The notes under the pieces are model-generated. The model saw nothing but the letters and a program-made list of their open reading frames with translations. It had not been told where the DNA came from and did no database searches. Below, in pieces: positions 165-31,661 of a stretch of 64,000 bases of DNA. Source of the stretch: Rhodococcus triatomae (GTDB taxonomy: Bacteria; Actinomycetota; Actinomycetes; Mycobacteriales; Mycobacteriaceae); assembly GCF_014217785.1 (NCBI RefSeq), contig NZ_CP048814.1:806001-870000 (forward strand), written 5' to 3'. Every line of letters starts with the position of its first letter. Positions within the stretch are counted from its first letter, which is position 1. The translations under genes were made by a program, and so were the position numbers.

Positions 165-1124
165 ATGACGACGCCGGTGGCCCGACATCCCCTGACGCAA
201 CTACAGCTCCTGCGCGAGTTGCAGCCCACCGCCGAGCAGAATCTCGAGCGGCACCTGTCCATCTCCAAGGAATGGAACCCGCACGACTACATCCCCTGGG
301 ACGAGGGACGCAACTTCGCCGCGATGGGCGGAACCGATTGGGACCCCTCGCAATCGAGGCTGAGCGAGACGGCCAAGGCAGCGATGATCACGAACCTGCT
401 CACCGAGGACAATCTCCCGTCCTACCATCGCGAGCTCGCGGAGAACTTCACTCTCGACAGCGCCTGGGGCACGTGGGTGGGACGCTGGACGGCCGAGGAG
501 AACCGGCACGGAATCGTGTTGCGGGACTACCTCGTCGTCACCAGAGCCGTCGATCCGGTGGCGCTCGAGCAGGCCCGCATGCAGCACATGACCGTCGGGA
601 TCGATTCGCCGCTCGAAGGCGCCAACCTCCTGCACTCCCTCGCGTACGTCACGTTCCAGGAACTGGCGACCCGGGTGTCCCATCGCAACACCGGCCGCGC
701 CTGCGGCGATCCGGTGGCCGACCGGATCCTCGCCCGCATCGCCGCCGACGAGAACCTGCACATGATCTTCTACCGCAACCTGTGTGGCGCAGCACTGGAC
801 ATCGCGCCCGACCAGACGGCCAAGGCGATCGGCGACGTGGTGATGAACTTCCAGATGCCGGGGCTCACGCAGCCCAACTTCCGGCGCAACGCGGTGCTCA
901 TGGCCAAGCACGGCATCTACGACCTGCGGCAGCACCTCGACGACGTGATCTCACCGGTGCTACGCAAGTGGAACTTCTTCGACCGCACCGATTTCGGACC
1001 CGAGGGCGAGCAGGTCCGCGACCGGATGGCGACGTTCCTCGAGGACCTCGACGCCCAGGCCACGAAGTTCGAGGCCTCACGGGACCGCGCCCTGGCCCGC
1101 GACGCCGCCCGCGCCGCCGGCTGA
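165..1124 (+). CDS. desA: Acyl-ACP desaturase, DesA1/DesA2 family
   Basis: A 319-residue soluble diiron desaturase that should introduce a double bond into an acyl chain carried on acyl carrier protein, as DesA1 and DesA2 do on the way to mycolic acids. The six expected iron ligands are all visible: E81, the EENRH motif (E112, H115), E166 in FQELATR, and the DENLH motif (E196, H199). The N-terminal stretch around WNPHDYIPW (residues 38-45) is typical of mycobacterial DesA1. I start at the ATG at 165 because GGAG lies just upstream (156-159) and the reading frame before it, open back to 36, has no family similarity. It stands alone and is followed by a perfect palindromic terminator. The family is secure; which DesA paralogue it matches is less so. 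Confidence 0.93.
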   Translation: MTTPVARHPLTQLQLLRELQPTAEQNLERHLSISKEWNPHDYIPWDEGRNFAAMGGTDWDPSQSRLSETAKAAMITNLLTEDNLPSYHRELAENFTLDSAWGTWVGRWTAEENRHGIVLRDYLVVTRAVDPVALEQARMQHMTVGIDSPLEGANLLHSLAYVTFQELATRVSHRNTGRACGDPVADRILARIAADENLHMIFYRNLCGAALDIAPDQTAKAIGDVVMNFQMPGLTQPNFRRNAVLMAKHGIYDLRQHLDDVISPVLRKWNFFDRTDFGPEGEQVRDRMATFLEDLDAQATKFEASRDRALARDAARAAG

Positions 1125-28098: not shown

Positions 28099-28467
28099 AT
28101 GCCGCACCTCCACGCTCCCGACCGCGCCACCCCCACCCGTCACGTCTCCGATGCAGCGGGGCCGCAGCGCTCGATCCTGTCGATCCGCTCGGAAGGATCG
28201 ATTCTCTCGATAGGTTCCGCGTACTCGATCCTGTCGATCGGCAGTGTCGGATCGATTCTGTCCGTGGGGTCGATGGGTTCGTTCGGCTCGGTCCTCAGCA
28301 GCTTCTCCTTCGGCAGTCTCGGCTCCGCGTTCTCGGCCGTGTCCCGGTGGTCGCTGCTGTCCTGGCGCGGCAACCATTCCTCGCCCGCCGATCAGCGTCC
28401 CCCGCTGGTGGTGATCGCGGACGAACACGACACCGAGGATCATCTGGCGGCCCATTGCCAGTGCTGA
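28099..28467 (+). CDS. Ser-Ile-Leu-Gly repeat protein
   Basis: A 122-residue protein whose middle (about residues 24-90) is built from short repeats of the form S-I-L-S-I-G-S-x-G/A-x, for instance GSILSIGSAYSILSIGS, which decay toward FGSVLSSFSFGSLGS and SLLSWRG. There are no charged residues in the core of the repeat. No signal peptide is seen. The C-terminal 30 residues are polar and end HCQC. The ATG at 28099 has only a weak ribosome-binding site, but a stop codon lies just upstream in frame so it is the sole candidate. I recall similar repeats in other actinobacteria, with no known function; a regular solenoid is likely. Confidence 0.6.
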   Translation: MPHLHAPDRATPTRHVSDAAGPQRSILSIRSEGSILSIGSAYSILSIGSVGSILSVGSMGSFGSVLSSFSFGSLGSAFSAVSRWSLLSWRGNHSSPADQRPPLVVIADEHDTEDHLAAHCQC

Positions 28468-29945: not shown

Positions 29946-30845
29946 TCAGCGCGGCTCGAGCGACCGGAAGTAGTCGGGCCGGACCTCCACGTCCTCGACG
30001 ACCCTGGTCGTGGTGCGGACCCCGAGAGCGTGCTCCTTGAGCAGTTCACACAGCCGGTCACCGTCGATGAGGTCGATCGGCGGGGCCCCGTCGCGCCGCG
30101 ACTCGGCCCGGGCGTCGCCGGTGAACGTCCCGGTGGTGATGAGCAGGCCCTTCTCGCCCCGACCCGACATCGCGCCACGGAAATCGCGCACGGTACGGGC
30201 CTCCACGCTGCCACTGTTCCGGCGGCACTGGAAATACACCGGGAAGCTCAGCAGAGCCAGTTGATAGAGACCGAGCCCCTCCACGTCCCCGGACCCCGTC
30301 CGGGCCGTCACCGAGGCACTCGAGAATCCGGCCTCCCGCAACAGCCGCTGAGTCAGCCGCTCGAACGCGTCGGGGGACATCGCGAGCACGGTCTCGAGAA
30401 GCTGGTCCTTCCAGTTGTCGTTGTCGGCCAGGGTCGCGTCGGGCTCGTCGTGGGAGGAGTCCCCGGCGGACTCGGGCCGGGCGGCCGCTTCCGCGTTCTT
30501 CCTGGCGGCATTGCGCTTGCGGGTCTCGGCCGAGAACTCGGCGTGCAGTGGCCGGATCTGTTCCTCGGTGACCTCACGGCCCTTCGCCGTCACGCTCCAC
30601 ACCCCGCGGCGACTGTTGGTGAGCAGGCCCATTCCCTTGAGATAGGTCCGCGCCCAGGCCAGCCGATACTCGATCTCGGTGGTCGGGCCGTCACCGTGCA
30701 ACACCGCCTGTGCCTGCGAGGACAGCTCCTCGCGTGCGATGACCGCGCTGTCGAGCTCGTCGTTCGAGGCCGAACCGCCGAGGGCGATTGCCGCCTGCAA
30801 CGCGGGCCAGAGAAGATCGACATACCGCGGAACGAGGGCACTCAT
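29946..30845 (-). CDS. Mrr-family restriction endonuclease-like protein
   Basis: A 299-residue protein with an N-terminal winged-helix Mrr_N domain (about 1-100, including GLLTNSRRGVWSVTAKGR) and a C-terminal PD-(D/E)xK nuclease domain. In the latter, GSGDVEGLGLY supplies the acidic residue and VYFQCRR takes the place of the usual Q-A-K signature, with R instead of K; GLLITTGTFTGDAR follows as in Mrr. Such proteins cut modified foreign DNA. A charged Ala/Arg linker lies at 125-160. The start is ATG 30845 or ATG 30857; neither has a strong ribosome-binding site. No methyltransferase is nearby, consistent with a type IV enzyme. Confidence 0.85.
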   Translation of the reverse strand: MSALVPRYVDLLWPALQAAIALGGSASNDELDSAVIAREELSSQAQAVLHGDGPTTEIEYRLAWARTYLKGMGLLTNSRRGVWSVTAKGREVTEEQIRPLHAEFSAETRKRNAARKNAEAAARPESAGDSSHDEPDATLADNDNWKDQLLETVLAMSPDAFERLTQRLLREAGFSSASVTARTGSGDVEGLGLYQLALLSFPVYFQCRRNSGSVEARTVRDFRGAMSGRGEKGLLITTGTFTGDARAESRRDGAPPIDLIDGDRLCELLKEHALGVRTTTRVVEDVEVRPDYFRSLEPR

Positions 30846-30893
30846 GCGGACCAGCATGCCCGACCGCGTCGGGCGCCCGGCAAGGGCCCCGAA

Positions 30894-30954
30894 TTGCACC
30901 ACCCGCGCACCTTCCCGACAATGGTTCGCGGCGCACGACCGGGCGCCGCGAACC
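30894..30954 (+). promoter_or_regulatory. Possible promoter and 5' leader hairpin of the small-peptide gene
   Basis: TTGCAC (30894) and GACAAT (30917) are 17 bases apart and could be -35 and -10 boxes. Immediately after, GGTTCGCGGCGC (30923-30934) pairs perfectly with GCGCCGCGAACC (30943-30954) around an eight-base loop, so the hairpin would lie at the very 5' end of the transcript. The promoter boxes are imperfect; the hairpin is exact. Confidence 0.5.
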
Positions 30955-30976
30955 TCACACACAGGGAGTGCACACC

Positions 30977-31060
30977 ATGGATCTGGCGTTCCTCGCGGAC
31001 CTCTTCGGAGCCTTCTCCGACCTCTTCTCGGCTCTCAGCTTCTTCCAGAGCCTGTCCTGA
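30977..31060 (+). CDS. 27-residue amphipathic peptide
   Basis: A 27-residue reading frame from ATG 30977 (with GGGAG eight bases upstream) to TGA 31060. The peptide begins MDLAFLADLFGAF and ends FFQSLS. Asp and Ser residues fall on one helical face (8, 15, 18, 21/25) and Leu/Phe on the other (3, 6, 9/10, 13, 16/17, 20, 23), giving a clean amphipathic helix with net charge about -3. There is no signal sequence. A perfect hairpin precedes and another follows. Size and character recall the short helical porins PorA/PorH of corynebacteria or phenol-soluble-type peptides, but there is no sequence identity to rely on. Confidence 0.6.
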   Translation: MDLAFLADLFGAFSDLFSALSFFQSLS

Positions 31061-31066
31061 TCGGCC

Positions 31067-31108
31067 CGTGAACGGCGCCCGCACCGCGAGGTACGGGCGC
31101 CGTTCACG
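31067..31108. terminator. Perfect 15-bp stem terminator
   Basis: CGTGAACGGCGCCCG (31067-31081) pairs exactly with CGGGCGCCGTTCACG (31094-31108) around a 12-base loop. It starts seven bases after the stop of the 27-residue gene and precedes the end of the convergent lipoprotein gene, so it can serve both. Confidence 0.85.
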
Positions 31109-31133: not shown

Positions 31134-31661
31134 TCATTCCTCGCCGACCACGAACTCCACCCGGTCGACATCGACGTCCTGATCCTCGGGGTTGGCCGTT
31201 GCGGTCACCGTGATCCGGTCCCGCTCGACCCCGTCGTCGACGAGGGCGTCGACGACCGCCGTGGCCCGTTGTTCGGCGAGTTGCGCGGCGGCATCCGCGT
31301 CGTCCCCGCTCGCATACGTCTTGACCTCGATCGTGTCGTCGTTGGTTCCCAGTGCGGCAGCGACGGCACGAATCGTGGCTCCGCTGACCGTGGACAGTTC
31401 CGCAGTGTCCGCATCGAACGTCACCGGTGCGGCTTCGACCGCGGAGTTCACCGCGTCCTGGACAGCAGCCACAGCTGTGTCCCCGACACCCGTCTCCTCG
31501 GTCGTCGCCTCGGCCTCGGTGGTGTGGTCCGTGTGCTCCTGCGTCGTCGTGGTCGTGGCGGCGTCGTCCGAATCGTCGTCGGCGCACGCGGACGCGCCGA
31601 CCAGCGCAATCGCCGACACCGCAGCCGCGGTCACCACTGCCTTGCGGGTTCTACCCATCAT
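31134..31661 (-). CDS. OmpA-like lipoprotein
   Basis: A 175-residue protein with a signal peptide and a near-lipobox (GASAC; cysteine near residue 26). A Thr/Glu/His-rich linker follows to about residue 55, then an OmpA-like peptidoglycan-binding fold with VTFDADTAEL, a middle TIEVKTYASGDDADAA and the motif LAEQRATAVVDALVDDGV. The family's usual aspartate/arginine pair is only partly conserved. The ATG at 31661 has AGGAGG at perfect spacing. It likely anchors to the membrane and contacts peptidoglycan. It converges on the 27-residue peptide gene. Confidence 0.8.
   Translation of the reverse strand: MMGRTRKAVVTAAAVSAIALVGASACADDDSDDAATTTTTQEHTDHTTEAEATTEETGVGDTAVAAVQDAVNSAVEAAPVTFDADTAELSTVSGATIRAVAAALGTNDDTIEVKTYASGDDADAAAQLAEQRATAVVDALVDDGVERDRITVTATANPEDQDVDVDRVEFVVGEE

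What the first reader, a model, noticed from the sequence alone, without database searches (positions are those of the whole stretch)
30894..31108. 27-residue amphipathic peptide gene bracketed by two perfect hairpins
Within about 215 bp there is a possible promoter, a perfect 12-bp hairpin at the expected 5' end, a good ribosome-binding site, a 27-codon frame for a clean acidic amphipathic helix, and a perfect 15-bp terminator starting seven bases after the stop. That is a compact, self-contained small-protein transcript unlike anything around it. Similar tiny acidic helices in relatives (PorA/PorH) form outer-membrane channels, so this could be a new small envelope protein, a signalling peptide or a toxin. 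Function is inference only.
Basis: partly seen in the sequence, partly recalled or inferred. Interest (0 to 1): 0.82.

Follow-up and report, generated by a model that had tools for sequence, protein, structure and literature searches.

The report
Tiny rhodococcal outer-membrane pore-like peptide gene
A 27-amino-acid gene in a Rhodococcus genome is real and conserved in its relatives, and it looks like a short cousin of the small helical pore proteins known from Corynebacterium, so rhodococci may carry unusually small outer-membrane channels beside their barrel-shaped ones.

Summary
In detail: a Shine-Dalgarno site, a 27-codon frame (30977-31060) and two strong inverted repeats are present. The frame is a real gene: relatives occur in 25 of 28 same-genus genomes (own included), and 15 close pairs change amino acids at 0.21 of the silent rate (P 7e-14). 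The downstream hairpin is a family feature (50 of 63 genes), the 5' hairpin is not (13 of 63). The peptide has no Lys/Arg and is amphipathic. The rhodococcal profile aligns with PorACj-family and PorH peptides; 0 of 300 shuffled profiles each, half of them keeping the hydrophobic pattern, reach the real scores. A second genus carries tandem relatives behind GroEL, where porH/porA lie. Best reading: a solitary alpha-helical mycomembrane protein of the PorACj/PorH kind, probably acylated at C-terminal serines, forming a homo-oligomeric, cation-preferring pore. Relatedness is well supported; export, acylation and pore formation are inferred. It misses the curated cut-offs of both models, so it is a new variant, not a formal member. 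My library searches showed no such peptide described in Rhodococcus; this genome also has seven MspA-like genes.

The parts
30894..30922 (+). putative promoter TTGCAC-N17-GACAAT
   Evidence: 0 of 200 shuffles score as high; -10 ends 54 nt before the ATG; in 31 of 42 family genes (this one included) the best match has its -10 ending 53-67 nt before the start (count), but only 4 of the 42 (this one included) have P<=0.05. Not found by the standard scan
30923..30954 (+). 12-bp perfect inverted repeat, 8-nt loop, overlapping the expected transcription start; 5' stem-loop or operator
   Evidence: upstream fold z<-2 in only 13 of 63 family genes
30963..30968 (+). Shine-Dalgarno AGGGAG, 8 nt before the ATG
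30977..31060 (+). 27-aa PorACj/PorH-like peptide gene
31067..31108 (.). terminator-like hairpin, 15 perfect pairs (19-nt arms with one mismatch), no T run; lies between convergent genes
   Evidence: downstream fold z<-2 in 50 of 63 family genes
31134..31658 (-). OmpA-family gene (PF00691), convergent neighbour; a homologue lies near the peptide gene in 7 other genomes

Best explanation
The gene encodes a 27-residue acidic amphipathic helix of the PorACj/PorH kind, made from its own short mRNA. Shown here by computation: the frame is under purifying selection; a strong fold after the stop is a family feature; the rhodococcal peptide profile resembles PorACj-family channel peptides (core FFGGFSDIFGGL in L244; DLFGAFSDLFSAL in the window) and PorH more than shuffled profiles do; a 37-aa relative is predicted as one helix. 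Inferred: as in Corynebacterium the peptide leaves the cell without a Sec/Tat signal, is O-mycoloylated on C-terminal serines (FFSGS in relatives, FFQSLS here), inserts in the mycomembrane (27 residues are about 40 A as a helix) and assembles as a homo-oligomer, since this genome holds a single detectable copy, as C. jeikeium does with PorACj. With only aspartates as charged residues the lumen should prefer cations. It would work beside the seven MspA-like genes of this genome.
For: Frame: 15 close pairs, silent 54/396, replacement 33/1176, ratio 0.21, Fisher 7e-14. Spread: 25 of 28 genus genomes, 97 of 401 family genomes at E<=0.01 with the wider profile A12; in a draw of 298 genomes of the order 7 match A11 at E<=0.01, six in this family (own included) and one outside, in a 568-aa frame. 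Homology: A2 (17 rhodococcal peptides only) vs 13 solitary PorACj-family peptides, probability 89%, score 26.2; 0 of 150 full and 0 of 150 hydrophobic-pattern-keeping shuffles reach it (max 22.8). A2 vs PorH 83%, score 25.8, max 17.6, 0 of 150 and 0 of 150. A2 searched over 401 genomes lands in G414 exactly on porH behind GroEL, E 0.0049. The porH_2 model's hit falls on the peptide gene in 7 genus genomes and in G107 of genus g10, though E is only 0.087-0.365. Bridge: genus g4 has tandem relatives, in L154 behind GroEL, and their profiles align with PorACj-family peptides at 95%, 0 of 300 shuffles each. L242 has all eight charged positions given for PorACj. One copy in the own genome. Helix 3-36, mean pLDDT 84, for relative L138. 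OmpA-like and Rv2525c-like neighbours.
Against: The window peptide has no hit in Pfam or NCBIfam at E<=10, and its relatives stay below the PorACj_fam and porH_2 cut-offs. It is shorter than PorACj (40 aa) and lies at another locus. The A2 profile does not recognise L242 and L247, the two peptides nearest PorACj (2.6 and 1.0 bits), though 10 of the 17 PorACj/PorH-type sequences tested pass the inclusion line. Direct window-L242 similarity is reached by 7 of 1000 shuffles, window-L247 by 32 of 1000. g4 first-gene peptides vs PorH: 2 of 150 and 16 of 150 shuffles reach the score. In the other 18 of the 25 genus genomes with the peptide porH_2 gives no hit at E<=1 on it. The rhodococcal channels of PMC9233653 are MspA-like. 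Two genomes with the flanking genes lack the gene. There are no expression or localisation data, and an oligomer could not be modelled.
Confidence: 0.6

Rival explanations
1. A mycomembrane or cell-wall peptide of the same family that is not a pore but a structural or surface lipopeptide.
For: Same evidence of relatedness; family members differ greatly in their C-terminal tail; MspA-like genes already provide channels.
Against: The nearest characterised relative, PorACj, forms channels in bilayers (PMC3792995, passages).
Confidence: 0.22
2. A secreted surfactant-like or signalling peptide comparable to phenol-soluble modulins (comparison recalled, no call).
For: Short amphipathic helix.
Against: Acidic, without Lys/Arg in 46 of 56 distinct family peptides; similarity to wall channel peptides.
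Confidence: 0.08
3. A membrane-active toxin of a type I toxin-antitoxin pair.
For: Small hydrophobic peptide beside stable hairpins.
Against: No basic residues, regionally conserved position in the genus, purifying selection on the sequence; an antisense RNA was not looked for.
Confidence: 0.03
4. A non-coding RNA or chance frame between two hairpins.
For: No Rfam, Pfam or NCBIfam family at the site.
Against: Purifying selection on the frame; the coding part does not fold better than shuffles (z<-2 in 0 of 63).
Confidence: 0.02

Closest known systems
PorACj of Corynebacterium jeikeium (NCBIfam NF038022, PorACj_fam)
   Same: Solitary short gene, no sorting signal seen, amphipathic helix, shared core, hairpin after the gene
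   Different: 40 aa with four lysines, anion-selective (PMC3792995); its family mostly lies behind GroEL; the window peptide is 27 aa, without Lys/Arg, at another locus and below the model's cut-off
PorH of Corynebacterium (NF033938, porH_2)
   Same: MDLSF-like start; profile alignment colinear from residue 1
   Different: About 60 aa in the best-scoring members, followed by porA, hetero-oligomeric pore proposed (PMC12632848)
   Same: Found by the rhodococcal profile; same core
   Different: 47-53 aa, two or three genes in a row
MspA-like porins (PF09203)
   Same: Presumed compartment; the published rhodococcal channels of PMC9233653
   Different: Much larger beta-barrel proteins (frames of 206-259 aa here); no similarity

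Membership tests
PorACj family (NF038022) | score over the curated cut-off of 28 bits | tested here: not met
   window no hit at E<=10; best of six rhodococcal peptides 14.6 bits.: no match in G000
PorACj family (NF038022) | profile similarity over the helix core | tested here: met
   family profile A2, 89%, 0 of 300 shuffles reach the score; but A2 does not recognise L242 and L247 one by one
PorACj family (NF038022) | single gene not paired with a partner | tested here: met
   one family member in the own genome; the second match, E 9.2 in a 252-aa frame, is chance-like
PorACj family (NF038022) | locus behind GroEL2 | tested here: not met
   between mrr-like and OmpA-like genes, near a fumarase-like gene
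PorACj family (NF038022) | forms channels in lipid bilayers | not testable with these tools
   needs peptide
PorH (NF033938) | score over the curated cut-off of 30 bits | tested here: not met
   window no hit; no match in G000, best hit on a rhodococcal peptide gene 16.3 bits
PorH (NF033938) | profile similarity to PorH | tested here: met
   83-89%, 0 of 300 shuffles reach the score
PorH (NF033938) | tandem porA partner | tested here: not met
PorA | profile similarity to PorA | tested here: inconclusive
   13-26%; 0 of 300 shuffles reach 17.1 but the best shuffle has 16.5
O-mycoloylated proteins | acylated serine in a flexible Ser/Gly/Ala-rich stretch | not testable with these tools
   C-terminal serines present; no strict motif exists (PMC11066868, passages)
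MspA porins (PF09203) | MspA domain | tested here: not met
   no Pfam hit
Type I toxins | antisense RNA antitoxin | not tested
   -

The most novel reading that the evidence does not exclude
Rhodococci and several related genera carry an apparently unannotated superfamily of alpha-helical mycomembrane pores built from peptides as short as 25-27 residues, shorter than the 40-aa PorACj, homo-oligomeric and cation-preferring, working beside MspA-like porins; the Corynebacterium PorA/PorH system would be one branch of it.
Probability: 0.45. Interest if true: 0.82.

Novelty: new variant of a known kind. Interest (0 to 1): 0.66.

Why it matters
The helical kind of mycolate outer-membrane pore is described for Corynebacterium, while the rhodococcal channels of PMC9233653 are MspA-like. 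A conserved rhodococcal family would make the helical kind older and wider than Corynebacterium, give a minimal model of how a pore is built from one short helix, and bear on solute entry in laboratory and industrial strains such as R. jostii RHA1, which has two copies, one of them on its plasmid pRHL1.

Tried and rejected
No relative in the phage records with a Rhodococcoides peptide as query and none in the plasmid records with the window peptide. No solved structure by sequence, with PorH or A2 as query. No Rfam family at the site. The 5' hairpin as a conserved element: rejected for the family (13 of 63 with z<-2). Promoter by single-sequence shuffles: 4 of 42 family genes, this one included, at P<=0.05. 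A partner gene in the own genome: none. Weak one search matches inside long frames (genera g50, g51, g9 and some of g44) were taken as chance; the g44 match of G263, in a 55-aa frame at E 0.099, later proved real-looking.

Limits and dropped rows. The 63 genes come only from loci then held, with a Shine-Dalgarno score of 4 or more and 12 bits or more; genes missed by that filter are not counted. The 15 pairs were picked by me by similarity, each sequence used once, not from a tree; five more distant pairs were computed and left out of the sum. For the PorACj alignment, 19 loci were read; five PorH-type peptides and one identical peptide were left out, 13 used. A12 contains one PorACj-type row, and A11 that row and one PorH row, so their hits on such genes in g3 are partly built in; A2 contains none. 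The number of other-family genomes among the 298 is not given by the tool. In some searches my OmpA-like and Rv2525c-like query proteins were in a wrong reading frame; one search repeats them correctly and replaces those rows. (larger shuffle control) timed out; one search is the smaller run. In some searches and 15 loci of the minus strand were read on the wrong strand; alignment A1 is therefore faulty and was not used further (replace it).

Full report
What is there. Both repeats are beyond chance (0 of 200 dinucleotide shuffles each; folding z -4.6 and -5.6). The standard consensus scan finds neither a promoter nor a T-tailed terminator, so these names are inference. With a -10 ending at 30922 the transcript would start inside the left arm of the 5' repeat, which may therefore be an operator as much as an RNA hairpin (inference).

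Is it a gene? Yes. The peptide finds relatives at E<=10 in 22 of 61 genomes, a composite query at E<=1 in 25 of 28 genomes of the genus, and the profile A2 in the same 25 of 28 (own genome included). The three without it are G006, G011 and the 75% complete G008. The window's own species name was not obtained. Fifteen close pairs give 54 of 396 silent and 33 of 1176 replacement differences, ratio 0.21, Fisher P 7e-14. In a set of 63 genes from the loci held, the 90 nt after the stop fold strongly (z<-2) in 50 of 63, the stretch before the start in 13 of 63 and the coding part in 0 of 63. Of the 13 without a downstream fold, eight are first genes of a tandem pair (five of genus g4, two porH, L166 of g6), where no terminator is expected; five are not (L112, L172, L126, L161 and the second gene of L165). 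So a private terminator-like fold is a family feature and the 5' hairpin is a local one.

Where it sits. Of 25 other neighbourhoods of 16 kb, 15 hold at least one of the five window neighbours; 10 hold none. In seven (among them R. jostii RHA1 = G018, identified by its 1,123,075-base replicon and the match position) an OmpA-family homologue (42-48% identity) lies upstream on the other strand and CPBP-like and fumarase-like genes lie downstream; in eight an Rv2525c-like homologue follows the peptide gene, which points the other way relative to the flanking genes. G006 and G011 keep mrr-like, OmpA-like, CPBP-like and fumarase-like genes and have no detectable peptide. So the position is conserved regionally, with local rearrangement and loss. 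OmpA, Mrr, Rv2525c-like and Rce1/CPBP-like domains are Pfam results; the fumarase name is recalled.

What it resembles. The window peptide has no Pfam or NCBIfam hit; two of six rhodococcal peptides tested score below cut-off on the PorH and PorACj models. Four lines then agree. (a) The porH_2 model run over 301 genomes has its hit on the peptide gene in seven genus genomes (G001, G004, G005, G015, G018, G024, G026) and in G107 of genus g10, although E is 0.087-0.365; in the eighth genus genome with a hit (G011) it lies elsewhere, as it does in several other genomes that carry the peptide (for example G036, G185, G241), and the remaining 18 of the 25 genus genomes with the peptide give no hit on it at E<=1. 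(b) A2, built only from rhodococcal peptides, lands in G414 exactly on porH behind a GroEL gene, E 0.0049 (GroEL = PF00118). (c) Genus g4 carries two or three relatives in a row; in L154 they follow a GroEL gene, the place of porH-porA in Corynebacterium (PMC5944148, passages). (d) Profile alignments of A2 with seven PorH peptides (score 25.8) and with 13 solitary PorACj-family peptides (26.2) are reached by 0 of 150 full shuffles and 0 of 150 shuffles that keep the hydrophobic/polar pattern; g4 profiles align with the PorACj set at 95%, also 0 of 300 each. The PorH set of seven includes one peptide (L094, the same gene as L228) that files under PorACj. The PorACj cut-off is met by 19 of 151 genomes of genus g3, taken as Corynebacterium from its porH-porA genes, not named by a tool. 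Of 19 such loci read, 16 show a GroEL tail upstream within the held stretch and five encode PorH-type rather than solitary short peptides. L242 carries all eight charged positions given for PorACj, D3 E7 K24 K27 D28 E31 K35 K40.

Against this: the A2 profile gives L242 and L247 only 2.6 and 1.0 bits, while 10 of 17 PorACj/PorH-type sequences pass its inclusion line; window versus L242 is reached by 7 of 1000 shuffles and versus L247 by 32 of 1000, the other eleven by 0-15 of 1000. g4 first-gene peptides versus PorH are reached by 2 of 150 and 16 of 150 shuffles. Similarity to PorA is weak.

How it probably works. PorACj is a 40-residue, homo-oligomeric, alpha-helical wall channel without sorting signals, shown in lipid bilayers (PMC3792995, passages). 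PorA/PorH lack identifiable Sec signals, are O-mycoloylated and are modelled as a 5+5 pore about 34 A deep (PMC12632848, introduction, model section and discussion). O-mycoloylation sites are Ser-rich and flexible without a strict motif (PMC11066868, passages). The window peptide fits as far as sequence can tell: no obvious signal sequence (by eye), an amphipathic helix (36 of 56 distinct family peptides at P<=0.05, the window at 0.042), 27 residues or about 40 A as a helix, C-terminal serines, one copy. A single-chain prediction for the 37-aa relative L138 gives one helix, residues 3-36, mean pLDDT 84.3, pTM 0.47, least certain at the C-terminus; it says nothing about oligomers. On the helical wheel one half carries F5 L6 L9 F10 A12 F13 L16 F17 L20 F23 but also D2 and Q24; the other carries D8 G11 S14 D15 S18 S21 but also M1 L3 A4 A7 A19 F22. 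I infer export, acylation and homo-oligomeric pores with a cation preference. Seven MspA-like genes are present as well, so it would be an additional channel.

Novelty. Searches of the held open-access library listed no paper describing PorA/PorH/PorACj-type peptides in Rhodococcus; I judged from titles, abstract starts and the papers opened. The paper on rhodococcal channels describes MspA-like proteins (PMC9233653: abstract, passages, one section). Subscription papers are mostly missing, and the older R. erythropolis channel paper is not held. Of five Rhodococcus plasmid records with a copy, three are annotated and list no gene under the match, in a gene table that is known to be incomplete; two, RHA1's among them, carry no annotation in that collection. 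The peptide fails the curated cut-offs, length and locus of the known families, so I file it as a new variant of a known kind.

Noticed in passing
window 498-565 (-): Rfam ASdes sRNA (RF01781), 61.3 bits, over the gathering score.
   Followed up: no
window 28099-28464 (+): 122-aa frame with a serine-rich SILSIGS-like repeat; no Pfam match at E<=0.1.
   Followed up: partly
window 29946-30848 (-): Mrr-type restriction endonuclease (PF04471, PF14338); homologues 78-79% identical in 9 other neighbourhoods.
   Followed up: partly
own genome G000:C1:1113214-1117691: Six MspA-like genes in a cluster plus one elsewhere; two of the six have identical scores.
   Followed up: no
G006 locus L183 1930-5787: Where the peptide is missing, a 543-aa amidohydrolase-like and a 467-aa chloride-channel-like frame (names by eye) lie between the OmpA-like and mrr-like genes.
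   Followed up: partly
L155 (genome G148, genus g4): Two successive tandem pairs of the peptide genes, as if duplicated.
   Followed up: no
L002/L025 (genome G007) and L003/L023 (genome G010): Two diverged family members per genome, one near the CPBP-like and fumarase-like genes and one elsewhere.
   Followed up: partly
R. jostii RHA1 pRHL1 (NC_008269.1) 696317-696412: Plasmid-borne copy; copies also on four other Rhodococcus plasmids. Three of the five records are annotated and list no gene there; two, this one included, have no annotation in the collection.
   Followed up: partly
L195, L229-L231 (genus g44): Short relatives such as MGSVDFSALGDFFGAFGDIFGGIGTLSSFSAE in a further genus with 6-8 Mb genomes, so the family may reach beyond rhodococci.
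   Followed up: partly
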